DNA of 48,158 nucleotides from a virus. The position numbers and the translations under genes are program-made. Shown here piece by piece: positions 1 to 43,499 of this stretch. Within the stretch, counting starts at the first letter, position 1; each line of letters opens with the position of its first letter. The stretch spans positions 1 to 48,158 of IMG/VR virus record IMGVR_UViG_3300035698_013459; one strand, written 5' to 3'. The notes below the pieces were generated by a model, which worked only from the letters and a program-made list of their open reading frames with translations, was not told the DNA's origin and made no database searches.

Positions 1-2681
1 AACGCCTTGGGGAAGGAAGTTATAAGCCTAAAGAGAATTTACAATTAGTTGAGAACACACGAGCTCTTGAATTGGCCAAGAAGCTGGACATAAAATACAT
101 ATGTAGCACCGACGCTCACATGCCAGAACTTGAAATGAAAACTGTCCAAAAAGTAAAAATGTGGAATAAATCAAAAAATTGGGAATTTGATTATATCTAC
201 TATTTACATGATTATAAAGAATTTAAGAAACAATGGATGGAAGAATACTTTCTCTCGGAGGAAATTTTTGAAGAGGGCTGTAAAAATACTATAGAGATAG
301 CTGATAAATGTCAAGATCTGGAATTGGAATTTAGTCATAAACTTCCTAAGATACAGTATGAGACCTATCCTGGGCATAAAAAGAACCAGACTAACACCGA
401 TCTTGTGGTTGAATTGGTCAAATATCACGATAAGGTAAATTTAAAAGACCCAGTGTATACTAATCGTTTAGTAAAAGAATTGAAGGTTTTGGGTGATAAT
501 GGCATAATTAATTTATTAGATTATTTTCTTTTATTGGAAGACGTCTGCCGTCATTGTAAAAAACAAAATATTAGATTGGGAGTAGCTCGTGGTTCAGCGG
601 GTGGCAGTCTTCTTGCTTATGCTCTTGATATTACTGACCTTAACCCTATTCTTCATGGTCTGTCTTTTGAACGTTTTATTAATCTCGCTCGTATTAAAAT
701 GGGTACATTTCCTGACATAGATTTAGATGTTGAAAGTGTGCGACGAGCTGAAGTAATCAAATATATGCAGGAGAAGTACGGTGTTGACAATGTGGCTCTG
801 TTTGGTACGATTCACACAATGAAAGTTAAATTAGCGTTAAGAGATACTATAAGGATACTAGATTCTACTTTACCACAAGAGAAGATTGATAGCATGGCCG
901 CTTCTATTCCGTGGATAGAATCAGAGAATAGCTCATTGGAAGAGATGGCCGAAATCCTTGATCAGTCTCCCGCCTTGAAAACATATTTTAAAAAGAGGCC
1001 AGACATACAGAAGGCTCTAATTTTGTCTTTGGGTCAGATGAGGCAATTTGGCGCTCATGCGGCTGCGGTTTGTATAAGTCCCACCCCAATCAATGAATTT
1101 GTGCCTTTGGCTAAAAAATCTAAAGATGAATTCTTTTATACTCAATATCCTATGGGGTATTGTGCTGAAGCTGGTTTGATTAAATATGATATTTTGGGTC
1201 TTAAGACCCTATCTGATATTGGTGGGTGTCTGGACATGGTATATGAAAGAACTAGCAAAAAGATTGATCCATGGAAAATACCATTAGATGATGAAGAGAC
1301 TCTGAGGGCTTTTAATAGGGGCAGAGACTATAATGCCACCATATTTCAGTTCAACACAGAAACTTTTAGCGATTTATTAACTGGTGTCAGGGGTGAAAAA
1401 CTGCATTTTAATGACTTAGTGGCTCTGAACACCTTGGGTCGTCCGGGAACTTATGACACAGGCATGCATTTAAAATGGATTGAGAGACGAAGGGGTGCAC
1501 CTCCTTCAGTTTTACATGCGGCCATGTGGCCTATCCTTAAAGACACTTTTGGGATTATTCTTTATCAGGAACAGGTCATGGCGATATTAAAATTAATGGC
1601 TGGATTTAATGACGAAGAAGCTGATGATATTAGAAGGGCCATTGGTAAGAAAAAAGTTAATTTGATTGATCATTATGGCAAAGTCTTTAGGGAAAGGGTG
1701 TCTACATACTACCCCGATGTTACTCCTAAGAAAGCTAATGATATTTGGGACAAAATTCAGTCGTTTGGTCGGTATAGTTTCAATAAGTCTCATTCAGTTG
1801 GGTATTCACAAATAGCATATGTCTGCCAGTATTTGAAGACACACTATGGATTAGAATGGTGGTGTTCTATTCTAAGAAACGAGACTGAGGATGATAAACG
1901 AAGGTCTTATTATCAGTTTATACGTAAGAAGATGGCTCCTTACGACATTAATCATTCAGATGATGCTTATTACATCAATAAAATCAATGGGAAGGAATTG
2001 ATTGTCCCCCCTATTAGCTCCATAAAATTTATTGGTAAAAAAATCATGGCGAAAATTCGTAAGCAGCGCCCCTTTAAATCTTTTGATCATTTTATGGGGT
2101 ATGCTTCTAAAGCTTCGGTTACCTTCAAAAAGAATGTAATTATGAACATGATTATTGGGGGGTTGTTTGGCTCTATAGAAGAGCGGACGGAGCTAGAATT
2201 GATCGAATGTTTTTATAAGACCTACCTTGGGGCTAAGATTAAAGCCAATGGGGAAGGTAATAGCAAATTTAAGGAATGGGAAGAGAATTATAAATGTATG
2301 ACTAACGACATATTGCAGCAAAAGAAGATGGAGCTTTTGCCCCATAATAATGTTGATCTTAATGATCTTCTCCCAGTAGAACATCAGGCTAAATACGATA
2401 ATTTTAGTGAGGCTTTGGCCAAGGGTGATCGGGACCCAGTTAGATTAATAGGTCTAGTCCTTGAGGTACATAATATTAAGACCAAGAGTGGGAAATCAAT
2501 GTTCTTTGCTACTATAGCTAATCAAGGGCTAAATATACCCTTAACCGTGTTCCCAAATTGTGCTACAAAATTTAGAGAGATTTTTCGTAAGGGAAAAATC
2601 GTTAGAGTTAATGGAAGAATAAATTTTTATGGTAGTAAGTATGGCATTGCCGTTGATGATGCGGCCGAATTTAAATCTTAA
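1..2681 (+). CDS. dnaE: DNA polymerase III alpha subunit-like (family C), 5' partial
   Basis: Replicative DNA polymerase of the bacterial DnaE type, expected to copy the phage genome. The frame is open to the left edge (first full codon at base 3), so the start and most of the PHP domain lie outside the window; the PHP tail with STDAHMP is at about 107-125. A GSAGGS loop (590-607) precedes the palm motif PDIDLDVE, whose Asp codons at 714 and 720 are the metal ligands. ILYQEQVM, RRAIGKKK and FNKSHSVGYS follow in the usual DnaE order, and the last 90 or so residues look like an OB fold. About 890 residues are visible, against roughly 1,050-1,160 in full DnaE. It ends 11 bases before the dNMP kinase and heads the rightward replication operon. 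Confidence 0.95.
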   Translation, partial: RLGEGSYKPKENLQLVENTRALELAKKLDIKYICSTDAHMPELEMKTVQKVKMWNKSKNWEFDYIYYLHDYKEFKKQWMEEYFLSEEIFEEGCKNTIEIADKCQDLELEFSHKLPKIQYETYPGHKKNQTNTDLVVELVKYHDKVNLKDPVYTNRLVKELKVLGDNGIINLLDYFLLLEDVCRHCKKQNIRLGVARGSAGGSLLAYALDITDLNPILHGLSFERFINLARIKMGTFPDIDLDVESVRRAEVIKYMQEKYGVDNVALFGTIHTMKVKLALRDTIRILDSTLPQEKIDSMAASIPWIESENSSLEEMAEILDQSPALKTYFKKRPDIQKALILSLGQMRQFGAHAAAVCISPTPINEFVPLAKKSKDEFFYTQYPMGYCAEAGLIKYDILGLKTLSDIGGCLDMVYERTSKKIDPWKIPLDDEETLRAFNRGRDYNATIFQFNTETFSDLLTGVRGEKLHFNDLVALNTLGRPGTYDTGMHLKWIERRRGAPPSVLHAAMWPILKDTFGIILYQEQVMAILKLMAGFNDEEADDIRRAIGKKKVNLIDHYGKVFRERVSTYYPDVTPKKANDIWDKIQSFGRYSFNKSHSVGYSQIAYVCQYLKTHYGLEWWCSILRNETEDDKRRSYYQFIRKKMAPYDINHSDDAYYINKINGKELIVPPISSIKFIGKKIMAKIRKQRPFKSFDHFMGYASKASVTFKKNVIMNMIIGGLFGSIEERTELELIECFYKTYLGAKIKANGEGNSKFKEWEENYKCMTNDILQQKKMELLPHNNVDLNDLLPVEHQAKYDNFSEALAKGDRDPVRLIGLVLEVHNIKTKSGKSMFFATIANQGLNIPLTVFPNCATKFREIFRKGKIVRVNGRINFYGSKYGIAVDDAAEFKS

Positions 2682-2692
2682 AAGGAGAAGAC

Positions 2693-3514
2693 ATGACTAA
2701 AAAATTAGAAGATTCTACTGTTATTGTGGCTTTTATCGGGCCTAAAGGGTGTGGGAAGACCACAGCATGTAAACATCTAGGTGCTAAGAGTGATGGGACG
2801 ATATTGACCTTTGCTGCTGAATTAAAGAAACTGTGTAAGGAAGCTTTCCGTCTTTCTGATGATCAGGTTTATGGAACTCACAAAGATGTTGCCTTTGCTA
2901 AGCCCATGGTACTTACAGAGAGAGCAGTTAAAAGGGTTACGAAAGGCATGGATATCAAACTTCATGAGTTTAATCCAAGCCACAAATTTTCGTGGTCTAA
3001 AATAGCTGTTAATAAATTCCCCGTTAATGCTAAGACATTTAACAGCCCTAGAGAGATTATGCAGTATGTTGGAACAGAACTGATGCATTCACTTTACCTG
3101 CCATTTCACTGTGAAGTAATGGGTCCGAATATTACTGGAGCTGGTTATTATTTTGTAGATGATTTAAGATTTATGAACGAATATGAATATTTGAAGGAAT
3201 TGTGTCCTTCACTTAAGATTGTGTTGATCAAGGGACGCAAAGAAAAGAAAACAGGGAAAGAAGAGCATTCTTCAGAGGCTGAATGGAAAAAAATTGACAC
3301 AAATTATACTATTAATAATTCAAAAACGATAAAAGAATACAGAACTAATTCAGAAGAACTCTTTGATACTATAATAACAGATATCGAAAAAGACTATGCA
3401 GACAAACCAGACACTAAAAAAGTCATAAATAATATCTTAAAGGACGATCATGACCCTAAATTTGGAAAAAATAAAGTCAGAGTTGGTAAGTTTATATTCG
3501 AAGCGAAAGCGTAG
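2693..3514 (+). CDS. Deoxynucleoside monophosphate kinase-like P-loop protein
   Basis: Probably phosphorylates deoxynucleoside monophosphates to feed DNA synthesis, like T4 gene 1. The P-loop GPKGCGKT is at residues 16-23, and the following 'AAELKKLC' helix with a V-Y-G-T-x-K-D stretch is typical of phage dNMP kinases. Length 273 aa. The start has the ribosome site AAAGGAGA. In a phage that may use an unusual purine, this kinase could have to accept dZMP as well as normal dNMPs; that is inference. The 3' end overlaps the next gene by 65 bases. Confidence 0.75.
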   Translation: MTKKLEDSTVIVAFIGPKGCGKTTACKHLGAKSDGTILTFAAELKKLCKEAFRLSDDQVYGTHKDVAFAKPMVLTERAVKRVTKGMDIKLHEFNPSHKFSWSKIAVNKFPVNAKTFNSPREIMQYVGTELMHSLYLPFHCEVMGPNITGAGYYFVDDLRFMNEYEYLKELCPSLKIVLIKGRKEKKTGKEEHSSEAEWKKIDTNYTINNSKTIKEYRTNSEELFDTIITDIEKDYADKPDTKKVINNILKDDHDPKFGKNKVRVGKFIFEAKA

Positions 3515-10265: not shown

Positions 10266-10934
10266 ATGGCAGAAGAAGAAGTAAATCAACGGATTATCCC
10301 GTTGGAGTTAGACGAAGTGTTGTTTTTTATGTGGGCCAATGGCATGTCTCATGACGACATTGTTGCCCATTTTAAAGATTCAGATACTCCTTTTGATAAA
10401 AAACAATTGTATAGATATGCTCATAAAAGGGGTTGGGTAAAACGCAAGGAATCGATAGAAAGAGAAATTAAGAAAGATTTTGAGGACATCTTAAAAAGGT
10501 GTCAGTCTAAGAAAATGTCGGCCATCTCTATGGCAATCCAGACAGTTAGTGATATAATTATTAAAGATGTGGCAGATTATAGGGAGAATCCTGAGGGCTT
10601 TTGGAGGGATGTTAAGGATTTCAAACGTCCGCGCCCTTTTTGGATGGCCAAGAATGTTAGCGATCTTTCAGAACTTTATAAATTACAGAAATTCTTAGAA
10701 TTGAGCGATCAGCAAGAATTAGATGAAGGTAGAATTCATGAGGGCGAGAAGGCTGCTATACTTCAAGCTCTGGCCGATGTTCAGAAGATTAAAGCTGCTG
10801 AAGAATATAAATTATTACCAGAAGGTGAGATTGTTGATGCAGAGGTAGAGGAAATTATTGATGGTAAAAACGAAAAAGATAGACACGACATTGATCAAGA
10901 GGATCAGGGACCTACCCTGTGCGAGCAAGACTGA
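10266..10934 (+). CDS. Terminase small subunit candidate
   Basis: Likely DNA-recognition subunit of the packaging motor. The N-terminal 60 residues look like a helix-turn-helix (SHDDIVAHF ... KKQLYRYAHKRGW, followed by KRKESIERE), as in phage TerS proteins, and the C-terminal half is helical and acidic. It lies directly upstream of the large terminase and overlaps it by 74 bases. The assignment rests on position and the predicted HTH. Confidence 0.65.
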   Translation: MAEEEVNQRIIPLELDEVLFFMWANGMSHDDIVAHFKDSDTPFDKKQLYRYAHKRGWVKRKESIEREIKKDFEDILKRCQSKKMSAISMAIQTVSDIIIKDVADYRENPEGFWRDVKDFKRPRPFWMAKNVSDLSELYKLQKFLELSDQQELDEGRIHEGEKAAILQALADVQKIKAAEEYKLLPEGEIVDAEVEEIIDGKNEKDRHDIDQEDQGPTLCEQD

Positions 10935-13900
10935 GTTAGATAATTTTTTCATAACTTTTTTTGGTGTTCATCTTGCAAAAGTCCCCTTGATGCCTGGCAA
11001 TAGCTGCCCGCTTGATTTTGCGTGGGATGTTTATAAAACTGCCTTAGCAAGGGTTCTTACTACTGACGATGTTACTAACTTTATGTCTATGGCAAATCGT
11101 GGTGGTCAGAAGTGCGCTCGTGGTGATACTATGGTGTCTACTAATTCTGGCATTAAACGTTTAGACGAATTCGTTGATAATGATTATATTTCTTCTTATC
11201 CTAGATCAGCTATTGGGACAGGCCTTGAATTTAATGGCATTAGGGAAATATGGCGTATAGACACCCATAATGGGTATTATTTCGAAGGCACTAACGACCA
11301 TTTGGTGTCTACTTATGATAATGGTGTGGTTTATAAAACTATAGAGAACATCACTAAAGATGACCATATTATGGTTGGTGGTAATAATGGTGATACCAAT
11401 TTTGCAGAATACAATAATTTTGATCTTGGTTATTTAGTTGGCGTGTTGATTGGAGATGGATGTTTAACTATAAAAGATAGTATCCAATTAGAAATCCAAG
11501 ATTTGGGAGTTTTAAATAAAACTAAAGACATCTTAAATAGGCAATATAATATCCACTTTAATTTAAAATTTAATAAGACCAATAATTGTTGGAGAGTTAG
11601 ATTCAAAAGGACTAATTTTAAAAAATGGTTATTGTCCATGGGACTGGAGGAGGTCACTGCGCCTCATAAAAAAATTCCTAAATGCGTCTGGGAAGGTAAT
11701 ACGGATATGCGTTCTGGGTTTTTATCTGGATATTTTGATACCGATGGTAGTTTAACTTGGGGTAGGGGGAGAGGCTCTCATTGTAGATTCCGGTGGGGCG
11801 TTGCTTCCGAACAACTTATGAAGGATTTACAAGTATTGTTAATAAATTATAAGATTAAGTCTCATCGGTCTCAAAGGAATTTTCAGGCCGCTAAAAATAA
11901 TAAGGCGAAACGTGGGAAAACTTATACTTCGTATAATCTGTGTATTAATGGCATATTCGCCCATAAATTATTATCTTTAATATCTTCATTTAGTACCAGA
12001 AAAACTAGGGTTAAGGCTTTTGCTAACGCCAATGGAGCTAATCCTGATACACTGAACGGTGATACTTTCCCTAAAGATAAAGTGTGGGGATTGGTTGAAG
12101 ACATAAGGAAACATTACCAAGACAATTATAGATTTGATGATAGGTATTATGTTAGGAACAAAGCCAACATTGGTGGTAAATATAAAACCATTACTAGAAG
12201 GAAATTAAAGAAATTTTTAGAAGTCTATGAGATGTGTGATGCTTGTGATTCTTATAAAGAACTTAAATTGCTCATAAAAAGTGGTTTTTTCTTAGAAGAA
12301 GTAAAGAAAGTACATAATATTGGTATTAAAGACAAGGTTTATGATTTAACTGTTCCTGATAATAAAAATTTTCTGGGTAACGGGATGGTAGTTCATAACA
12401 CCCTCACGTGTGCGTGCGTCATTTCTATTTTGTTGATGCATGACCTTTATAGAGATATTATTCACATGGCGTCTATTGCTGCGCAGGCCAATGTCCTTTT
12501 TGAAGTGTGGCTTAATAAATTTGCTGCCCGCCCTTATATGGAAGATGTGTTTACCAAGTTAACCATGCGCAAAACGGTGTCGCGTACTACGAAGATGTTG
12601 ACAGTAACTCATGGTACAATGGATGCTGTGAATGCTCATCATGGTGGAATTCTTATCCAGGATGAGGTTGATTTAACGGCTCCCAGAGTGTTTGGTGAAT
12701 CAAAGGGTATGCTTGTTGCTTCCCAGGGGCGAGTACCATTGAACGTTATGATTTCATCTCGTAAGTATGCAATGGGTAACATACAGACTATCTTAGATAA
12801 GATTGATGATGATCCGGAATTTTCTAAACGTATTAATGTGCATAGGTGGGGACAGTTAGAGACCACGAGGAAATGTGATGATGAGCGGTCTGGCGAATTC
12901 GGTGTAGAAATTATGGTCAACGAAGATGATCTTTTGGCCCTTCCTATCAAGGAATGGCAGGGTCTCTCGAAGACAGAGCAATCTAAATATCAGATGATAG
13001 AGGGTTATAGAAACTGTCTTGATTGTGGTATTTTTTCTTTCTGTCAAGGACTTCTAAAGAAGCAAGTAGAGAATGTTCATCTAACTCCGATTGATGTTAC
13101 AGTTGATAACTTTCGCAGAGAGAGCGCGGAATTTTTTAAGGCCCAACGTCTTAATCGTAAACCATCGACTAAGGGTCTTATATATGGTTCTTATGATTCA
13201 AAAGTACATGATAAGAGTGAACCGGAGATCGCGTTATTGTTGTCAGAGGCTGAAGAGACAGCCAAAAATACCACAACGTTGGCGGCTTTATTAGAATTAG
13301 TTGTTAAACTTAAATTACCATTATATATAGGAATGGATTTTGGATACAATGAAGCTGCAGCGGAATTAATAACCGTGGATAGACAGACTAGAGTGTATAT
13401 CCTAGATGAATTGGACATGCCAGGATTGTCCGATCGTGATTTGGGGATAGCAACCCATAATAGGTGGGGCACATATCCCATAAATTACATATTTCCAGAT
13501 TGGGAAAGTCCGGGTGGCATTAAGGAACTTAGGAAGGTATGGGAATCCACGTGTGGTGTCTGTACAAATGCAAACAAAGACGTTCAGTATGGCATTAACT
13601 TGGTTAGGAACAAGTTATATAAGCCAGGGACTAAAGAACCTCATCTGTTTGTAAATAAATACCGGTGCTCCATGCTTAGACATTCATTTAAGAATTATAG
13701 ATATAGGATTGATCCTAAGATTGATGAACCCGTAGATAAGATTTATAAAAGATGGGATCATGCAGCGGATGCTGTTAGATACGTGTTAGCGACTATTATG
13801 GGTTCACACCCGTTTAGTGTATCCTGGGGAACTGGTGAAGCGGTTAAGACAGAGAATATAAATGCTGTAGATGGTAAACCGTCTTTGATACATGCGCCTA

Positions 13901-14037
13901 CGGGTTCGGAGTTAATGCAATTTGCTGGCAAGGAAGCACGGGCCACTTGGACTGATTTTGAAAAACAGATGGAAGAGGCTAATAAGGAAGAAGAAGCCGA
14001 CAAAAAGGGCTTTTGGTTTCATCTTCCGAATGATTAA
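10861..14037 (+). CDS. Terminase large subunit, interrupted by an intein
   Basis: Packaging ATPase and nuclease. The start is ATG 10861, with AGAGGA about nine bases upstream; a TTG sits just before it. The primary product has about 1,058 residues; removing the 429-residue intein leaves about 629 residues, normal for TerL. The Walker A-like loop is ANRGGQKT, and the intein sits exactly between its Lys and Thr. Walker B is GGILIQDEVD at about 12649-12669. The nuclease domain has YIGMDFGY (about 13321) and DHAADAVRY (about 13756). A Cys-rich stretch (CLDCGIFSFC) at about 13018-13047 may bind metal. Confidence 0.92.
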   Translation: MVKTKKIDTTLIKRIRDLPCASKTELDNFFITFFGVHLAKVPLMPGNSCPLDFAWDVYKTALARVLTTDDVTNFMSMANRGGQKCARGDTMVSTNSGIKRLDEFVDNDYISSYPRSAIGTGLEFNGIREIWRIDTHNGYYFEGTNDHLVSTYDNGVVYKTIENITKDDHIMVGGNNGDTNFAEYNNFDLGYLVGVLIGDGCLTIKDSIQLEIQDLGVLNKTKDILNRQYNIHFNLKFNKTNNCWRVRFKRTNFKKWLLSMGLEEVTAPHKKIPKCVWEGNTDMRSGFLSGYFDTDGSLTWGRGRGSHCRFRWGVASEQLMKDLQVLLINYKIKSHRSQRNFQAAKNNKAKRGKTYTSYNLCINGIFAHKLLSLISSFSTRKTRVKAFANANGANPDTLNGDTFPKDKVWGLVEDIRKHYQDNYRFDDRYYVRNKANIGGKYKTITRRKLKKFLEVYEMCDACDSYKELKLLIKSGFFLEEVKKVHNIGIKDKVYDLTVPDNKNFLGNGMVVHNTLTCACVISILLMHDLYRDIIHMASIAAQANVLFEVWLNKFAARPYMEDVFTKLTMRKTVSRTTKMLTVTHGTMDAVNAHHGGILIQDEVDLTAPRVFGESKGMLVASQGRVPLNVMISSRKYAMGNIQTILDKIDDDPEFSKRINVHRWGQLETTRKCDDERSGEFGVEIMVNEDDLLALPIKEWQGLSKTEQSKYQMIEGYRNCLDCGIFSFCQGLLKKQVENVHLTPIDVTVDNFRRESAEFFKAQRLNRKPSTKGLIYGSYDSKVHDKSEPEIALLLSEAEETAKNTTTLAALLELVVKLKLPLYIGMDFGYNEAAAELITVDRQTRVYILDELDMPGLSDRDLGIATHNRWGTYPINYIFPDWESPGGIKELRKVWESTCGVCTNANKDVQYGINLVRNKLYKPGTKEPHLFVNKYRCSMLRHSFKNYRYRIDPKIDEPVDKIYKRWDHAADAVRYVLATIMGSHPFSVSWGTGEAVKTENINAVDGKPSLIHAPTGSELMQFAGKEARATWTDFEKQMEEANKEEEADKKGFWFHLPND
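11113..12399 (+). other. Intein with LAGLIDADG homing endonuclease in TerL
   Basis: Self-splicing protein insert of 429 residues. It begins with Cys (CARGDTMV), has the B-block-like 'GTNDHLVST' and ends with 'NGMVVHN' before extein Thr, so the terminal His-Asn and the +1 Thr nucleophile are present. Two dodecapeptides typical of LAGLIDADG endonucleases are visible: YLVGVLIGDG (11431-11460) and FLSGYFDTDG (11718-11747), so it probably cuts intein-free terminase genes. Insertion in the ATP-binding loop means no active terminase is made until splicing occurs. Confidence 0.92.
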
Positions 14038-19744: not shown

Positions 19745-20416
19745 ATGGAAGACAAATTTTTAGACAGATTATATCGACTTCGTTTATTAAAGAGATTTTC
19801 AATCAGGGCAGTTAATACACAGACTTCACCGGCTGAGCATTCTTGGTATGTCGCCGTCTTGGCCCTTTACATAGCCAAGAGGTACAATGCTAGCGACCTT
19901 TCTGAAAAAGATCAGCTTTATGATATTTCTTCTTTGTTAACTAAAGCCATGCTGCATGATGCCCCAGAGGTTATCACTTCGGACATTGTCCATTTTATCA
20001 AGCATTTTAATCCTGCTACAGAGCGAGTAATGGTGGAGATTGAGAATGAAGCCATTGATAATTCTTTGTTGGGTGATATGGATTCTTCCATCAAACCATT
20101 TTTTGAATATAATATCAAAAATGCAAAGGATGACACTCTAGAGGGTAAATTAGTTAGTTTGTGTGATTTATTAGAAATTGGCTATTATACTGTTAACGAG
20201 CGTACGGTTGGTAATATACAAAAATGGGTGGACGAGGTTTTTAAGGGAATTTGCGATTTGGTAGAGAGTCAAGTCGAAGCTTATCATCCTGTACTACAAG
20301 AGATCATTGGAGAATTAATATCGCACCTTAAACATCAATTTGGCTCCATAAATTTGCCAAGCAACAGTGACCTAATAGGGATGAGCTATGATAAAAAAGC
20401 TGCTAAAAAATCTTAG
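19745..20416 (+). CDS. YfbR-family HD nucleotidase (DatZ-like candidate)
   Basis: HD phosphohydrolase of the YfbR/OxsA family, which removes phosphates from deoxynucleotides. Metal ligands: His32 in AEHSW, His71-Asp72 in LHDAPEVITSD, and Asp141 in LVSLCDLLE; the N-terminal LYRLRLLKRF matches YfbR. Length 223 aa, slightly longer than YfbR. In phages with 2-aminoadenine DNA, DatZ of this family destroys dATP so adenine is not used. A PurZ-type gene 3 kb downstream supports that role here, but dATP specificity cannot be read from sequence. It has its own promoter. Confidence 0.82.
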   Translation: MEDKFLDRLYRLRLLKRFSIRAVNTQTSPAEHSWYVAVLALYIAKRYNASDLSEKDQLYDISSLLTKAMLHDAPEVITSDIVHFIKHFNPATERVMVEIENEAIDNSLLGDMDSSIKPFFEYNIKNAKDDTLEGKLVSLCDLLEIGYYTVNERTVGNIQKWVDEVFKGICDLVESQVEAYHPVLQEIIGELISHLKHQFGSINLPSNSDLIGMSYDKKAAKKS

Positions 20417-21409: not shown

Positions 21410-21542
21410 ATGGGAACACGTAGGATTAGTGTGCCCCTATTGTAATTTAGAGATAGGATTTGATAATGAGCCAGAAAAAATGCCCCAAATGCGGGGCGAA
21501 TTTTGTTCCTTCGAAGTTCAAACCGAGCCAGAAATATTGTAG
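21312..21542 (+). CDS. Small zinc-binding protein overlapping neighbours
   Basis: A 76-aa frame starting at ATG 21312 after ATAGGAAAA. A basic N-terminus (KKLKNRLSRRLKCLLGRHH) is followed by REIHQSKWEHVGLVC and PYC, giving Cys/His pairs for one zinc. It overlaps the preceding gene by 98 bases and the next by 77. The segment from residue 14 to 50 looks truly coding; the last 25 residues may be neutral overlap. Confidence 0.45.
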   Translation: MLKKLKNRLSRRLKCLLGRHHLINHYREIHQSKWEHVGLVCPYCNLEIGFDNEPEKMPQMRGEFCSFEVQTEPEIL

Positions 21543-23019
21543 TCCTCATTGTGCTAAGACAGATTATATGAGTGAGTATAATAAAACTGGTGCTCGCAGG
21601 AGGGCCGTACTTTCAAAAGAGAAATGTCTATGTTGCGGTACAGAAACTAACAAGATGACTACAAACAAAGAGTGGGGGAGGATCTGCTCTTCGTGTGCTT
21701 TAAAACTTAAGAATGGGACCCCAATTCAAAGTGAATTATTTAGTCCTAGCGGTGGTCAATATCGTGGTAGAGATTGGTGGATCGGAAGACAGATAGGCAA
21801 ATTCAAAGTAGTGGACATCCCGATAGATCCTTTGTGTGATGGAGCGTACGTAGAAACTGAAATAACCATAGAATGCCCATTAAAGCATCAATTCAAGAGG
21901 AGGGCTAGTTATGTTGGTTCTATTTGTCCGACATGTGCAGACATAGCAGACAAAAACAAAAGAAACTTTAAAAAAGCGATATTGCCGGCCCACGCTGGTT
22001 TTGACGAGTGGGCGACAATTTTATATAATAACACAGGTATAAAACTCATTGATGCTTCAGAAAATGGATGGTACACAAATCACCGGATGAAAGTGCAATG
22101 TAAATGTTGGTGCGGGAGATTATGGGAACCTAACTGGACTGACATAGTGAGAAAGCGGATTGTGTCGTGCGGGTGTATTAGCAAATCTTCACAGGCTAAT
22201 GAGGAGATTTATCAGTATGTTACAGTAGACATGGGTCTAAAAGCATATAAGGAGCATCCAATCGACAGTATGCAGATCGACGTCTACGTGCAGGACAAGG
22301 GATTGGCGATAGAGCACAATGGTCTGAGATGGCACCATGAAAGGCAAGATCTTAAAAAATATAACTTGTGTGGACGTAATGGTCTGGAATATTTTGCTTT
22401 TTATGAAGATGAATGGCTGTGGAAAAAGAAATTGTGCAAAAGATTTTTAAAACGTAAGTTGGGCAAGCTTCCGCCCTTATATAGTAATGAAACCCAGTCG
22501 GCTTCTAGAATAAATTTCACCCAACTTCCACCAGACGATGAGGTTAAGGATTTTCTAAAGAAGCATAGTTTGAAAACCATCAATGAACTTTCTAATGCTA
22601 AGACCATTGGCGCAAACGTTGCTGGCTATTTCGGTGATCGTATGGTTTGTGTTATAGGTTTAGATTTTGGTAAGTATCCTGCGGTAGCGGCGATACCGTC
22701 AACAGTTGATTATATGGTAGAGGATCTATACTTCGACATCCCAGACCTTTGGAAGACTGCTTGGGAATGGATTCATTATTATCTTGGTGTACGACACTCA
22801 GTTGGTTACACGGAAAATCGTTTGGGGATTGATAATAAATTTAAAGAGGCTGGTTTTGTACTGGATAAGGAAATAGAACCAGATTATTTTTGGATAAAAG
22901 GTCAAAGAAGATATCCTAAAGAACGAGAACCAGAGGATAAAATTAATTGGCATCGCCTTTTTGATTGTGGTCAGAAGAAATGGGTAAATAAGGTTAACAA
23001 TGACAAAGGAAAGGTATAA
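21466..23019 (+). CDS. Vsr-type (EDxHD) free-standing endonuclease, Hef-like
   Basis: Predicted homing-type DNA endonuclease. Several zinc ribbons occupy the N-terminus (CPKCG/CSPHC, CLCCG/CSSC). A Vsr-like nuclease core follows: MQIDVYVQDKGLAIEHNG then RWHHE at about residues 265-290 (acidic residues and His of the EDxHD type). The C-terminal 'GYTENRLG ... FKEAGFVL ... PDYFWIKGQRR' module is shared with phage Hef-like enzymes. The start at ATG 21466 is preferred over TTG 21460. Such genes spread by cutting related phage genomes and are often inserted beside important genes. Confidence 0.75.
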   Translation: MSQKKCPKCGANFVPSKFKPSQKYCSPHCAKTDYMSEYNKTGARRRAVLSKEKCLCCGTETNKMTTNKEWGRICSSCALKLKNGTPIQSELFSPSGGQYRGRDWWIGRQIGKFKVVDIPIDPLCDGAYVETEITIECPLKHQFKRRASYVGSICPTCADIADKNKRNFKKAILPAHAGFDEWATILYNNTGIKLIDASENGWYTNHRMKVQCKCWCGRLWEPNWTDIVRKRIVSCGCISKSSQANEEIYQYVTVDMGLKAYKEHPIDSMQIDVYVQDKGLAIEHNGLRWHHERQDLKKYNLCGRNGLEYFAFYEDEWLWKKKLCKRFLKRKLGKLPPLYSNETQSASRINFTQLPPDDEVKDFLKKHSLKTINELSNAKTIGANVAGYFGDRMVCVIGLDFGKYPAVAAIPSTVDYMVEDLYFDIPDLWKTAWEWIHYYLGVRHSVGYTENRLGIDNKFKEAGFVLDKEIEPDYFWIKGQRRYPKEREPEDKINWHRLFDCGQKKWVNKVNNDKGKV

Positions 23020-23027
23020 ATTAAGTT

Positions 23028-23234
23028 ATGACTCAATGGGTTTCAAGAATTGTAGGACCGAAAGAGGTTGGTACGACTCTTAATGATTTGACAACAGAAG
23101 GCTGGCATTGTTGGCCTCAATGTATACAAGTAATACAAAATATGGACTTGGTTCTTATAGTAGGTAGCCAAGAGGACTTTATGGATTTATATAATAACCC
23201 ACAGGAGGAAGACGATGAAACAAGGCAAGTTTAA
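23028..23234 (+). CDS. Hypothetical small protein, DUF4177-like
   Basis: A 68-aa protein with the pattern 'TTLNDLTTEGWHCWPQC ... DLVLIVG', similar to small DUF4177-type proteins (short beta-alpha-beta with L..L..xGW). It overlaps the start of the purZ-like gene by 20 bases, so they are probably translated together. Confidence 0.6.
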   Translation: MTQWVSRIVGPKEVGTTLNDLTTEGWHCWPQCIQVIQNMDLVLIVGSQEDFMDLYNNPQEEDDETRQV

Positions 23235-24357
23235 TATTCTATTAGATGGATTTCATGGGAGTTCTGGTAAAGGTAAGATGAGTACATATTTGGCACAAAA
23301 GTGGGGAGTGCGAGGTATGTGTTCAACTAATATGCCCAATGCTGGTCACACCGCGATCATTGGGGGTCACAAATTTATAGCCAAGATTTTACCCACCGCT
23401 GCCATCTTGAATAAGGTTCACAAAGAACTGCAGCCTCTTATTTACATAGGCCCCACGGCGGCCTTTACTATTGACCAATTTATGAAAGAAATGGATGAAT
23501 GCGAGCTGTCTTCTGACCAAGTCATTATTCATCCGCGTGCTGGCGTGATCACCCCCGCCCATAAAGAGTTAGAACAAACAGATTTAAATGGACCAAAATC
23601 TATAGCATCGACATGCCAAGGAGCGGGGACATTCTTGGCAGACAAGATACTGCGTCGTCCAAACCTTCTATTGGCGAAGGATTACCCAGATTTGAATAAG
23701 TACGTTTGCGGTGTAGAGGATTTTCCTCGTATGATTAATGCCCTTATGCAGGACATTAATGTGACTATGCTTCATGAAGTTAGCCAAGGGATCGGCCTTG
23801 ATATAAATCATGGTAGTCATTATCCTAATTGTACGTCTCGCAGCACTAATTCATTACAGGCCATCGCTGATATGGGAGTTCATCTTAAAAATGTTGGCGA
23901 CATCTATTTGAATATCCACGCAACTCCAATTAGAGTAGGAAACATCATAGAAGACGGGAAGCGAGTGGGATACTCAGGAGACTTTTACCCAGACGCTAAG
24001 GAGTTGACGTGGCAAGAAGTTGGAGAAAAGGCAGGAATGCCCCAAGAAGACATCGACGGACTATTTTCTACACAGTTGACCACCGTTACTAAACGTTTGC
24101 GTCGAGTATTTGGATTTTCTTGGATCGGGCTTCGCCATGCCGTGCAAATTTCATCAGCCTCCAAAATTGTTCTTAACTTTGCCCAATATATCGATTGGAA
24201 GGCACTGGGGATGCGGGGAGAAGGCAAAGCTGCTTTTGAACGCTTGCCTCCAGCTGTTAAAGATTTTGTAAAAGAGATTGAGACAGTGACCCACCTACCG
24301 GTGGTTCTTATCGGTACTGGGCCAGACAATGATGATATCATTGATTTAGAAATCTAG
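23215..24357 (+). CDS. purZ: PurZ-type 2-aminoadenylosuccinate synthase (PurA family)
   Basis: Adenylosuccinate-synthetase fold. PurZ joins aspartate to dGMP, the first step to dZMP (2-aminoadenine nucleotide). The P-loop region is GFHGSSGKGK; Ser16 replaces the catalytic Asp of PurA (GDEGKGK), the change linked to use of dGMP instead of IMP. NAGHT (42-46) keeps the catalytic His; EVSQGIGLDINHG and the STGPD-like TGPDNDD near the C-terminus match PurA. Length 380 aa, shorter than the bacterial enzyme (about 430), as in archaeal and phage forms. GGAGGAAGAC precedes ATG 23215. It ends 4 bases into the convergent sigma gene. Confidence 0.85.
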   Translation: MKQGKFNILLDGFHGSSGKGKMSTYLAQKWGVRGMCSTNMPNAGHTAIIGGHKFIAKILPTAAILNKVHKELQPLIYIGPTAAFTIDQFMKEMDECELSSDQVIIHPRAGVITPAHKELEQTDLNGPKSIASTCQGAGTFLADKILRRPNLLLAKDYPDLNKYVCGVEDFPRMINALMQDINVTMLHEVSQGIGLDINHGSHYPNCTSRSTNSLQAIADMGVHLKNVGDIYLNIHATPIRVGNIIEDGKRVGYSGDFYPDAKELTWQEVGEKAGMPQEDIDGLFSTQLTTVTKRLRRVFGFSWIGLRHAVQISSASKIVLNFAQYIDWKALGMRGEGKAAFERLPPAVKDFVKEIETVTHLPVVLIGTGPDNDDIIDLEI

Positions 24358-25577
24358 GAATTTTCCCAAGCTCTTTTTAAAGGATTGAGGGTCTTTATAG
24401 GGTTATTATTAATGGCCTTCAATTTCTTTATACCTTTACTGTAATGGTCGTAGGTGCGCTTTTTGCTGATTTTGCCATTACCGCTCACATCTCCAAGTTC
24501 CCCAATGTCTTTAAATGCAGGTTCTTCACCTTCTTCTACAGGGATAATAATGGGACAATTGAAAGGCATAAGGCCGTAACGTAGTCTTATGACCTTTTCT
24601 TGTCTTGGGGTTAATTCTTTGAAAGCCGTTTCTAACAGTCCTCTTATACTTGCGGTGTCCAGGTTTTGCATGATCTGTGCTTCTTGATCGTGAGGGTCTG
24701 GCAAGGAATTTATAAATGAGGTGTCGTCTTCACCATCAAAATGATTATTGTCATTAATGATATACAGGCTTTGTTCTGCCATGGTTTTGGCTTTAAGTGC
24801 TTTTTCTAACGACCATCCCAATTTTTCTCTTACCTTTTCTTCTAGGGGCACTTGTTTTGTTTCTTCGGTTAAGGAGGTTATGGTTTTATTAAATTGATTT
24901 ACCATGTTGTTTATATAGATAGGTACTCTAATAGTCTTTGATTTGTTGGCTATTGCCCTTGATGCGTAGAGTTTGATCCAATGCATGGCCATGGTGGTGA
25001 ATTTTGTGTCTCGTCTATAGTCATATTTATCTATTGCTGTTATTAATCCTAAATTCCCTTCTTGTATCAGATCTGTGAAGTCCACGCCTTTGTTTGTGTA
25101 TTCCTTAATTACTTTAACTACAAGTCGTAGGTTAGCTGTTGCCATCATGTTTCTAGAGTGTAGATAGGCAGTGGCGTCCTTATGATAACCACAATGTTTT
25201 AAGGTGTCTAATAAAACGTCTGATTTAAATTTGAAGTGATAAAGTGTATTAAACCTTTTAGTGTGGTTCTTTGTGAGACTCAATTTTAATATGTATGCCT
25301 TGAATTGTATTCTGGCGGCGTGCATTGATATTGATTTGATTTGTTCGTCTGGGTTAGAACTGTCGCAATCACACACCATCAATGCTAGGGATTCTTCATT
25401 TTCTATAATCTTTATACATCGGTTTTCTAGATACTTAACAGCTTTGTCAGATTGTGATATTTTATGTAGAATCTGGTCTTTTGTTTCTTCAAAATCTGCA
25501 GTGATTTGATGAATGTCCTTAATATCCATTTTAGGCACTGAATTAAAATATGCTTGTATTGCTGGATCTCTGGTCAT
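24354..25577 (-). CDS. Sigma-70 family RNA polymerase sigma factor
   Basis: Directs host RNA polymerase to phage promoters. Region 2 is canonical: NLRLVVKVIKEYTNKG, then DLIQEGNLGLITAIDKYDY and FTTMAMHWI, followed by a region 3-like part. Region 4 begins ELTPRQEKVIRLRYGL but has an insert of about 15-20 residues (PFNCPIIIPVEEGEEP) before the helix-turn-helix 'FKDIGELG'. The N-terminal 130 residues replace region 1. Length 407 aa. It converges on purZ with 4 bases of overlap and is preceded by two small leftward genes. Confidence 0.9.
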   Translation of the reverse strand: MTRDPAIQAYFNSVPKMDIKDIHQITADFEETKDQILHKISQSDKAVKYLENRCIKIIENEESLALMVCDCDSSNPDEQIKSISMHAARIQFKAYILKLSLTKNHTKRFNTLYHFKFKSDVLLDTLKHCGYHKDATAYLHSRNMMATANLRLVVKVIKEYTNKGVDFTDLIQEGNLGLITAIDKYDYRRDTKFTTMAMHWIKLYASRAIANKSKTIRVPIYINNMVNQFNKTITSLTEETKQVPLEEKVREKLGWSLEKALKAKTMAEQSLYIINDNNHFDGEDDTSFINSLPDPHDQEAQIMQNLDTASIRGLLETAFKELTPRQEKVIRLRYGLMPFNCPIIIPVEEGEEPAFKDIGELGDVSGNGKISKKRTYDHYSKGIKKLKAINNNPIKTLNPLKRAWENS

Positions 25578-25946: not shown

Positions 25947-26303
25947 TTAGAATTTCTTGCCATGTTTATAAGGACGACCGCGATTAAACTCCATCTTTTG
26001 TAATAAAGCCTGAGGCCACACGCCCTTGTAATGTTCCTCAGCATAAGCCAAAATCCTAACTACAATATCAACAACTTCTTCAAGTTCGTTGCTAATGTCG
26101 TCTTTACGCACCGCTTCGGCCCACTCGCCGACTTCGCTCATAAATGCCACAAGTTGTGGAAGTTTCTCATGGAGCGGGAAACCGTGGTCTATGGCGTTAG
26201 AATGGCACTCTGTGGCTATGTTTAAGAGATTGGGGTCATTCTGAAGGCGTGCTGTTGTGAATTTACTAGTTGGGGTGTTTGCGTCGTATTTAAAATCGGA
26301 CAT
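25947..26303 (-). CDS. MazG-like nucleotide pyrophosphohydrolase (MazZ-like candidate)
   Basis: All-alpha NTP pyrophosphohydrolase. The metal-binding pattern ExxE (Glu57, Glu60 in SEVGEWAEA) and ExxD (Glu76, Asp79 in ELEEVVDIVV) is intact, and the C-terminal KMEFNRGRPYKHGKK is the substrate-side motif of single-domain MazG proteins. Length 118 aa. In 2-aminoadenine phages, MazZ of this superfamily converts dGTP to dGMP, the substrate of PurZ. The presence of PurZ 1.6 kb away makes that role likely, though specificity is inferred. A promoter lies upstream. Confidence 0.85.
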   Translation of the reverse strand: MSDFKYDANTPTSKFTTARLQNDPNLLNIATECHSNAIDHGFPLHEKLPQLVAFMSEVGEWAEAVRKDDISNELEEVVDIVVRILAYAEEHYKGVWPQALLQKMEFNRGRPYKHGKKF

Positions 26304-42114: not shown

Positions 42115-42188
42115 TGCGGGGTAGAGCAGTCCGGTAGCTTAACAGGCTCATATCCTGGTGGTCGTCGGTTCGAATCCGGCCCCCGCTA
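42115..42188 (+). tRNA. tRNA-Met (CAT), initiator type
   Basis: A 74-base cloverleaf with anticodon CAT at 42149-42151, T-arm GTCGG/CCGGC around TTCGAAT, and D-stem GAGC/GCTT. It resembles bacterial initiator tRNA: position 1 (T) does not pair with 72 (T), and D-stem pair 11-24 is A-T, both initiator marks. Of the three anticodon-stem G-C pairs, only two are present. No encoded CCA. An initiator tRNA is uncommon in phages. Confidence 0.85.
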
Positions 42189-42191
42189 CAT

Positions 42192-42265
42192 GCGACCATA
42201 GACTAATTGGTTAGGTCACCACTCCTTCACAGTGGAGATTGCGGGTTCGAACCCCGCTGGCCGCA
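42192..42265 (+). tRNA. tRNA-Glu (TTC)
   Basis: 74-base cloverleaf: acceptor GCGACCA/TGGCCGC (one A-C mismatch), anticodon stem CCACT/AGTGG with loop CCTTCAC, T-arm GCGGG/CCCGC. Anticodon TTC is at 42226-42228. Odd: loop position 33 is C instead of the nearly invariant T. Three bases separate it from the initiator tRNA, so they are probably processed from one transcript. Confidence 0.85.
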
Positions 42266-42284
42266 CAACAAAAGGAGAAAGAAA

Positions 42285-43499
42285 ATGTATAAGTTTCAAG
42301 AAGGTGGGTTACCAATATTAGCATGGCTAGAAAATCAAGAAGATTTGGAATCGGGGGCAGCTAAACAAGCGGTTAATCTATCTCTCCTACCTTTTGCGGT
42401 TGGACACATATGTTTGATGCCAGACACTCATCAAGGGTATGGCATGCCAATTGGTGGAGTACTAGCTACTAAGGATGTAATAATCCCCAATGCCGTAGGA
42501 GTTGACATCGGCTGTGGAATGTGCGCGGTTAAAACTAACATCAAAGTTGAAGAGCTGACCCAGGAAAAGATCAAGAAGCTGTTCGGAGGCAGCAAGGGAT
42601 ATCACGGTGGGATACGTTCTGCCATACCTACAGGTTTCAATCATCATAGCAAGAAACAGGATGAACGTCTGATGCCTCCCCTTCCCCAAAGTTGTGAATA
42701 TCTGCGCGAAAATGACTTTATTATTTATCAGGAGTGGTCCTCTGCTAGAAAACAGATAGGTACTCTTGGGGGTGGTAATCACTTTATTGAGATCCAGAAG
42801 GACGAAAAAGATAACGTCTGGATTATGCTTCACTCCGGCAGCCGGAACCTTGGGTTCAAAGTGGCCAATCATTATAATAAAGTGGCCATCGAACTTAACA
42901 AGAGATGGCTTTCTTCTGTACCTAAGAACCACGAGTTGGCGTTCTTACCTATCTCTTCTGAAGAAGGTGTTCGTTATTCAATGGAGATGAGTTATTGCGT
43001 TGATTTCGCTTTTAACAGCCGCAGGTTGATGATGACTAAGATTGAGGAGATTTTTGCAGATGAATTCCCTCATTATAATTCTATTGTAGAGCATAATATA
43101 GCTCATAATTATGCTGCAATTGAGAATCATTTCGGAAAAAATCTGATTGTTCATAGGAAGGGGGCCACTAGGGCTTATGAGGATGCAGTGGGGATCATCC
43201 CAGGTTCCCAGGGTGCTGCCTCCTACATAGTTAAGGGACTAGGAAATCCTGCCTCCTTCAAGTCTTGTAGCCATGGAGCGGGCAGACGTATGAGCCGGAC
43301 TAAGGCCAAAGCACAACTTGATTTGGCTACCGAAATAAAGAAGATGAATGACCAAGGAATTGTTCATGGCCTTAGGAACGTGGCAAACCTAGACGAAGCT
43401 CCTAGTGCCTACAAAGATATCGACGTAGTCATGGAAAACCAAAAGGACCTGGTAGAGGTCCTATACAAGCTCCAACCCATGGCGGTAATAAAAGGATGA
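42285..43499 (+). CDS. rtcB: RtcB RNA ligase
   Basis: tRNA-splicing and RNA-repair ligase that joins 2',3'-cyclic phosphate or 3'-phosphate ends to 5'-OH ends using GTP and Mn. ATG 42285 (AAAGGAGAAAG) is chosen; a longer frame would run into the tRNA-Glu gene. 404 aa, normal length. Motifs: MPDTHQGYGMPIGGV, GVDIGCGM (metal Cys), LGGGNHF, HSGSR, EHNIAHN and SHGAGRRMSR (guanylated His). Directly downstream of two tRNA genes, it may repair tRNAs cut by host anticodon nucleases. Confidence 0.95.
   Translation: MYKFQEGGLPILAWLENQEDLESGAAKQAVNLSLLPFAVGHICLMPDTHQGYGMPIGGVLATKDVIIPNAVGVDIGCGMCAVKTNIKVEELTQEKIKKLFGGSKGYHGGIRSAIPTGFNHHSKKQDERLMPPLPQSCEYLRENDFIIYQEWSSARKQIGTLGGGNHFIEIQKDEKDNVWIMLHSGSRNLGFKVANHYNKVAIELNKRWLSSVPKNHELAFLPISSEEGVRYSMEMSYCVDFAFNSRRLMMTKIEEIFADEFPHYNSIVEHNIAHNYAAIENHFGKNLIVHRKGATRAYEDAVGIIPGSQGAASYIVKGLGNPASFKSCSHGAGRRMSRTKAKAQLDLATEIKKMNDQGIVHGLRNVANLDEAPSAYKDIDVVMENQKDLVEVLYKLQPMAVIKG

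What the first reader, a model, noticed from the sequence alone, without database searches (positions are those of the whole stretch)
23245..23277. Catalytic Asp of PurA replaced by Ser in GSSGKGK
PurA has GDEGKGK, in which the Asp removes a proton from IMP. Here the same loop is GSSGKGK (Ser16, Ser17), while NAGHT and the C-terminal TGPD motif are kept. As I recall, loss of this Asp is the mark that separates PurZ from PurA, because it makes room for the 2-amino group of guanine. This single substitution is the strongest sequence evidence for the Z pathway in the window.
Basis: partly seen in the sequence, partly recalled or inferred. Interest (0 to 1): 0.75.

Follow-up and report, generated by a model that had tools for sequence, protein, structure and literature searches.

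The report
Phage PurZ enzyme, unusual Z-DNA lineage
A virus of bacteria carries an enzyme that has swapped the key acid of an ordinary adenine-making enzyme for a serine, the known mark of viruses that replace adenine in their DNA with 2-aminoadenine ("Z"); this one belongs to a so far uncharacterised branch that pairs the enzyme with a bacterial-type DNA polymerase.

Summary
Codons 23245-23277 read DGFHGSSGKGK, and Ser16 (AGT, 23260-23262) stands where PurA has its catalytic Asp13. Ser is present in all 64 PurZ and 5 PurZ0 sequences I aligned. Asp is present in 6/6 aligned PurA and in 77/77 readable cellular PurA loops. The tree needs one change of this residue. Other PurZ signatures agree (TTVTK loop, Gln324 for the GTP-reading Asp333, long insertion after PIRV).

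New points:
(1) Asp11 is not a replacement base. Asp at -5 and Glu at +1 exclude each other in all 75 sequences.
(2) The protein lies in a 31-member clade (SH-aLRT 100) known only from uncultivated viral contigs, eight of them over 200 kb.
(3) The contig has a DnaE-type (family C) polymerase and no family A polymerase. Published Z phages use PolA or PrimPol. A complete-genome relative, Bacillus phage vB_BpsS-140, shows the same pairing.
(4) The DatZ- and MazZ-like genes are divergent and not clustered with purZ.

No activity or base composition was measured. I call it a new variant of a known kind.

The parts
23215..24357 (+). purZ-like gene, 380 aa: predicted dGMP + Asp + (d)ATP -> N6-succino-2-amino-dAMP synthetase
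   Evidence: phrog_1211 '2-aminooxy adenylosuccinate synthetase' 2.2e-45; PF00709 4.9e-30; best PDB sequence match phiVC8 PurZ 6fm1 6.9e-39, ahead of archaeal PurA 5k7x 2e-29; tree inside the PurZ branch; AlphaFold pLDDT 93.4
23245..23277 (+). P-loop DGFHGSSGKGK (the finding)
   Evidence: aligned to GSTGKG of phiVC8 and S-2L and to GDEGKG of PurA
23260..23262 (+). Ser16 codon AGT in place of catalytic Asp13 (= S-2L Ser23)
   Evidence: Ser in 64/64 PurZ and 5/5 PurZ0, Asp in 6/6 PurA
23245..23247 (+). Asp11 codon GAT (E. coli Gly8 column): PurZ-specific acid that replaces Glu14 in all-or-none fashion
   Evidence: D with non-E 60, G with E 15, no other combination
24079..24093 (+). TTVTK (289-293): PurZ aspartate-loop signature (S-2L T273-K277)
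   Evidence: T273 in 63/64 PurZ, G in 6/6 PurA
24184..24186 (+). Gln324 in place of guanine-reading Asp333 of PurA; same as Gln308 of S-2L PurZ, so an adenine nucleotide as donor is predicted
   Evidence: S-2L ligand contacts in PMC8342488
24094..24096 (+). Arg294 aligned with PurA Arg303, which contacts the 2'-OH; kept here, so deoxyribose preference cannot be read from sequence
19745..20416 (+). YfbR-like HD phosphohydrolase, DatZ candidate (dATP removal)
   Evidence: PF12917 9e-24, phrog_7076 dATP triphosphohydrolase 6.9e-15; R-F-x-I keeps S-2L R19 and I22 and K81, but P79 and K116 are lost
25947..26303 (-). MazG-like pyrophosphohydrolase, MazZ candidate (dGTP -> dGMP)
   Evidence: phrog_3301 2.7e-13; 61% conserved in sister contigs L021 and L022; catalytic acids kept, I56 -> V and D60 -> A
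3..2681 (+). DnaE-type DNA polymerase III alpha, 5' end cut by the contig end; only recognised polymerase on the contig
   Evidence: PF07733 2.5e-61, PF17657 8.5e-37; phrog_405 1.1e-189; no PF00476 match
2693..3514 (+). deoxynucleoside monophosphate kinase directly after dnaE; candidate dZMP kinase (inference)
   Evidence: phrog_139 2.6e-26; PF21448 5e-07; the same pair in L105 and L106

Best explanation
The gene is a true purZ. Its product most likely condenses dGMP (made by a MazG-like dGTPase) with aspartate, using ATP or dATP, to N6-succino-2-amino-dAMP. Host PurB and kinases (perhaps helped by the phage dNMP kinase) would turn this into dZTP. Shown: the family, the Ser16 substitution, the PurZ-type loops and the placement in the PurZ branch. 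Inferred: substrate, donor and product. Further inferred: the phage's DnaE-type polymerase copies dZTP into the genome, with the HD phosphohydrolase lowering dATP, so the DNA is wholly or partly ZTGC.
For: Ser at the Asp13 position in 64/64 PurZ and 5/5 PurZ0, Asp in 6/6 PurA, one change on the tree. Asp in 77/77 readable cellular PurA loops. Best solved sequence match is phiVC8 PurZ, with a bound-dGMP structure. PurA, PurZ0 and characterised PurZ are separate groups (99-100), and the window lies with PurZ. TTVTK, Gln324 and the long insertion after PIRV are PurZ-like. Published rule Asp13 -> Ser in PurZ. HD (DatZ-like) and MazG-like genes within 4 kb. A 38%-identical PurZ in complete-genome Bacillus phage vB_BpsS-140, which likewise has DnaE and no PolA.
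Against: No biochemical or base-composition data. The NCBIfam PurZ model scores 175 bits, below its curated cut-off of 300; a PurA model (PRK04293) scores slightly higher, 186.7, also far below its cut-off of 368. The fold does not separate PurA from PurZ: the top VIA-align hit is archaeal PurA 5k7x, Z 44.5, against phiVC8 PurZ Z 42.6. Arg294 is kept as in PurA, so GMP might be used as well. The DatZ and MazZ candidates lack some specificity residues, and the HD gene is absent from sister contig L021. The three genes are not adjacent. The contig is a fragment.
Confidence: 0.87

Rival explanations
1. An ordinary or degenerate phage PurA that raises the AMP/dAMP supply; the Ser is incidental.
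For: Same fold; archaeal PurA is the best structural match; Arg303 equivalent kept; a 735-kb phage does carry a PurA.
Against: That phage PurA, six aligned PurA and 77 readable cellular PurA loops all keep Asp. Loss of Asp13 would cripple a PurA (established enzymology, from memory). The Ser form is conserved across a family as deep as 31-35% identity, so it is under selection.
Confidence: 0.04
2. A PurZ-like enzyme that makes 2-amino-adenine nucleotides, but the genome is only partly Z, because the DnaE polymerase is not selective and dATP removal is weak or absent in this lineage.
For: No DpoZ on the contig. HD gene divergent and absent in L021, in vB_BpsS-140 and in most large relatives. 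S-2L shows that a non-selective polymerase depends on DatZ (PMC8065100).
Against: Other dATP-removing enzymes exist (DutZ, DmtZ; PMC12884076) and could be unrecognised here; a deoxyribosyltransferase-family gene sits by purZ in many large relatives.
Confidence: 0.25
3. A PurZ0-type enzyme.
For: Same Ser at the Asp13 position.
Against: PurZ0 keeps Gly8, Glu14 and Asp333; the window has Asp11, Ser17 and Gln324. PurZ0 is a separate clade (100). No dUTPase-like or deoxyribosyltransferase gene was recognised on the contig.
Confidence: 0.02

Closest known systems
PurZ of Vibrio phage phiVC8 (6fm1/6fko/6tnh) and cyanophage S-2L (7odx)
   Same: Ser for Asp13, Asp at -5, TTVTK loop, Asn or Gln for Asp333, insertion after PIRV, pocket residues N42, A43, T133, R147, Q191, R240, V241
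   Different: 28-32% identity; separate SH-aLRT 100 clade; larger insertion after PIRV; Arg294; genome context with DnaE instead of DpoZ or PrimPol
PurZ (annotated purA) of Bacillus phage vB_BpsS-140
   Same: closest named relative, 37.8%; genome has DnaE, RecA and sigma factors, no PolA
   Different: loop is GGQVGSEGKGK: Gly at -5 and Glu kept; no YfbR-like HD gene; lies in another PurZ sub-branch (support 82)
PurZ0 (Gordonia phages Archimedes, 7vf6, and Ghobes)
   Same: Ser for Asp13
   Different: Gly8, Glu14 and Asp333 retained; DutZ/DmtZ neighbourhood (PMC12884076)
Short PurA of Pyrococcus horikoshii (5k7x)
   Same: short PurA architecture, best fold match Z 44.5
   Different: GDEGKG catalytic Asp, GTVTG loop

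Membership tests
PurZ (N6-succino-2-amino-dAMP synthetase) | Catalytic Asp13 of PurA replaced by Ser | tested here: met
   Ser16
PurZ (N6-succino-2-amino-dAMP synthetase) | Groups with characterised PurZ, apart from PurA and PurZ0 | tested here: met
   PurA and PurZ0 each one clade (99, 100); the window with PurZ (branch 99), own sub-clade 100
PurZ (N6-succino-2-amino-dAMP synthetase) | PurZ-specific contact residues (S-2L T273, Q308) and loss of guanine-reading Asp333 | tested here: met
   T289, Q324
PurZ (N6-succino-2-amino-dAMP synthetase) | PurA/PurZ fold | tested here: met
   but it does not separate PurZ from PurA
PurZ (N6-succino-2-amino-dAMP synthetase) | Discrimination for deoxyribose (PurA Arg303 contact lost) | tested here: inconclusive
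   Arg294 aligned to Arg303; phiVC8 Lys267, S-2L Leu278 in this column
PurZ (N6-succino-2-amino-dAMP synthetase) | Makes succino-2-amino-dAMP from dGMP, Asp and (d)ATP | not testable with these tools
   needs purified protein
NCBIfam NF038379 (naming model, not a biological definition) | score above the curated cut-off of 300 bits | tested here: not met
   175 bits; all PurA models also below their cut-offs
PurA (adenylosuccinate synthetase) | catalytic Asp13 | tested here: not met
   Ser16
PurZ0 | Gly8, Glu14, Asp333 kept and PurZ0 clade | tested here: not met
Z-cluster (datZ-mazZ-purZ of S-2L and phiVC8) | mazZ lies between datZ and purZ | tested here: not met
   HD gene 2.8 kb upstream on +, MazG-like gene 1.6 kb downstream on -
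Z-cluster (datZ-mazZ-purZ of S-2L and phiVC8) | DatZ with R19, W20, I22, P79, K81, K116 | tested here: inconclusive
   R, F, I, F, K, S in the window
Z-cluster (datZ-mazZ-purZ of S-2L and phiVC8) | MazZ-1 catalytic acids and guanine readers I56, D60 | tested here: inconclusive
   acids kept; I56 -> V, D60 -> A
DpoZ-type Z phage | family A polymerase | tested here: not met
   no PF00476 match in the window, L021 or L022; DnaE present in all three; all three contigs may be fragments
ZTGC-DNA phage | 2-aminoadenine in virion DNA | not testable with these tools
   needs mass spectrometry

The most novel reading that the evidence does not exclude
A large lineage of phages, including jumbo phages over 200 kb, makes Z DNA with a family C (DnaE-type) replicase instead of DpoZ or PrimPol. 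It manages dATP by means other than the known Z-cluster, with a deoxyribosyltransferase-family gene beside purZ in the jumbo branch.
Probability: 0.5. Interest if true: 0.75.

Novelty: new variant of a known kind. Interest (0 to 1): 0.5.

Why it matters
The Asp-to-Ser mark itself is known. What would be new is that Z biosynthesis extends to phages with a bacterial-type replicase and very large genomes. The held papers state that Z phages usually use PolA or PrimPol (PMC8599892), and none of those searched or read mentions DnaE, PolIII or jumbo Z phages. It would make testable whether a PolIII-type polymerase can select or tolerate dZTP, and how dATP is kept out without a canonical DatZ. The cultured phage vB_BpsS-140 offers a ready test.

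Tried and rejected
Fold comparison as a discriminator: uninformative, since PurA and PurZ share the fold.

Asp11 as substitute catalytic base: rejected as a general answer, because PurZ0 and four PurZ lack it. The exchange with Glu14 is perfect but rests on only 2-4 independent events, so it has no statistical weight.

Profile search of 84,980 cellular genomes with the window clade (A2): no relative found. The first attempt with the broader alignment A1 could not be run.

Search of known phages for the window's HD protein and MazG-like protein: only remote matches.

Papers on DnaE or jumbo Z phages: none found. The library lacks most subscription papers, so this is weak evidence of absence.

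PurZ0 assignment: rejected.

Full report
OBSERVATION. The window holds a 380-codon ORF at 23215-24357 (+). Bases 23245-23277 read GATGGATTTCATGGGAGTTCTGGTAAAGGTAAG = DGFHGSSGKGK. NAGHT (42-46) and GTGPD near the end are present. The protein belongs to the adenylosuccinate synthetase family (PF00709 4.9e-30; phrog_1211 '2-aminooxy adenylosuccinate synthetase' 2.2e-45). Its closest solved relative by sequence is PurZ of phiVC8 (6fm1, E 6.9e-39), then P. horikoshii PurA (2e-29) and S-2L PurZ (2.2e-28). The AlphaFold model is confident (pLDDT 93.4, pTM 0.92).

THE RESIDUE. I aligned the protein with S-2L, phiVC8, SH-Ab 15497 and other PurZ, with PurZ0, with PurA, and with relatives from IMG/VR contigs. 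Ser16 falls in the column of E. coli Asp13 and S-2L Ser23. Counts in that column: PurZ 64 Ser of 64, PurZ0 5 Ser of 5, PurA 6 Asp of 6. One of those PurA is encoded by a 735-kb phage, an in-phage negative control. As a further control I fetched cellular relatives of the archaeal short PurA: 77 of 77 readable loops have Asp. One of the six seed patterns of that search contains DEGK, so it is partly biased. On the tree the residue changes once.

REFINEMENTS. Ser17 is not the mark; it replaces Glu14. Two acids in the loop exchange as a set: Asp at -5 (window Asp11, E. coli Gly8 column) occurs only where Glu14 is lost (60 sequences), and Gly at -5 only where Glu14 is kept (15 sequences), with no mixed case. 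The four PurZ with Gly/Glu are vB_BpsS-140, L054, L068 and L081. PurZ0 and PurA are also Gly/Glu. This rests on 2-4 independent events. Because PurZ0 lacks Asp11, it is not the general replacement of the catalytic base. Other PurZ-type positions in the window: TTVTK (S-2L T273 region), Gln324 for guanine-reading Asp333 (Gln308 in S-2L, hence an adenine nucleotide as donor, inferred), and a 47-residue stretch between PIRV and TTVT against 24 in E. coli. One PurA-like position is kept: Arg294 at the Arg303 column, which in PurA contacts the 2'-OH (PMC8342488). So deoxyribose preference cannot be read from the sequence. 'Makes room for the 2-amino group' is plausible, but the S-2L structure gives 3.7 A from Ser23 to that nitrogen and says that its polarity may still contribute.

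PHYLOGENY. In a 75-sequence tree PurA and PurZ0 are each one clade (SH-aLRT 99, 100), and so is the set of characterised PurZ against the other groups. The window lies in the PurZ part, in a clade of 31 (support 100) that holds no named phage. Its sisters are L021 (61%) and L022 (57%). The clade includes eight contigs over 200 kb (L026, L027, L032, L035, L036, L037, L039, L041; sizes). It was not found in 84,980 cellular genomes.

CONTEXT. The contig (a virus record of 48,158 bases) has one recognised polymerase, a DnaE-type PolIII alpha cut by the left end. A deoxynucleoside monophosphate kinase follows directly. L021 and L022 have the same pair at 48-50% identity for DnaE and no family A polymerase. 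In the 31-member clade, 19 searched records have DnaE matches, often split over two or three ORFs. Five have a strong family A match (L032, L034, L046, L048, L049), and most others only weak partial ones or none. Of eleven named records searched, eight Z phages have PolA, S-2L has none (its PrimPol is known), and vB_BpsS-140 has DnaE and no PolA in a record described as a complete genome. [quoted passage not shown] I found no paper on DnaE Z phages in the held library.

POOL ENZYMES. An HD/YfbR-like gene (19745-20416) is a DatZ candidate: the Arg-Phe-x-Ile motif keeps the Ile that excludes a 2-amino group in S-2L DatZ, but Pro79 and Lys116 are not kept. It is in L022 and absent from L021. A MazG-like gene (25947-26303, -) keeps the metal-binding acids and is 61% conserved in both sisters, but not the guanine readers of MazZ-1. 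They flank purZ within 4 kb but do not form the published datZ-mazZ-purZ order. In the jumbo branch a nucleoside deoxyribosyltransferase-family gene (PF05014) lies 1.3-2.7 kb upstream of purZ in 10-12 contigs. That family includes DmtZ, so far reported with PurZ0 (PMC12884076).

CONCLUSION. Shown: the substitution, its perfect correlation with PurZ/PurZ0, PurZ phylogeny and PurZ-type loops. Inferred: dGMP as substrate, an adenine nucleotide as donor, dZTP production, and Z in the DNA. The last step is the least certain, because the replicase type is not the one known from Z phages and the dATP-removing gene is divergent. The finding itself is a new member by a known mark. The combination with DnaE and the uncultivated jumbo clade makes it a new variant worth testing in vB_BpsS-140.

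Noticed in passing
11113-12399 (inside terminase ORF 10858-14037): 429-aa intein with LAGLIDADG domain inserted in the Walker A motif of the terminase large subunit (GGQK|T); L021 and L022 have the uninterrupted GGQKT.
   Followed up: partly
L023, L024, L026-L028, L030, L031, L035, L037, L039, L064: 1.3-2.7 kb upstream of purZ: Conserved nucleoside deoxyribosyltransferase-family gene (Tyr, Asp, Glu kept) next to a conserved 232-aa ORF without Pfam match, and a 261-276-aa ORF directly downstream of purZ: a possible purZ-linked nucleotide module of jumbo phages.
   Followed up: partly
records of L023-L042: DnaE of many PurZ-carrying large contigs is split into two or three ORFs (for example G016 165634-167579, G020 255405-257323).
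   Followed up: no
42115-43499: tRNA-Met and tRNA-Glu directly upstream of an RtcB RNA ligase gene (PF01139 1.2e-109); the listed TTG start at 42207 overlaps tRNA-Glu, so the true start is downstream.
   Followed up: partly
21460-23019: HNH/homing-endonuclease-like ORF (phrog_559) just upstream of purZ, also beside purZ in L021 and L022.
   Followed up: no
24354-25577 (-): Sigma-70-type factor overlapping the end of purZ on the other strand; also in L021 and L022, with sigma factors in vB_BpsS-140 too.
   Followed up: no
L002:31814-35421: The DnaE of Bacillus phage vB_BpsS-140 is unannotated and read as two overlapping ORFs (363 and 852 aa), either a frameshift or a split gene.
   Followed up: no
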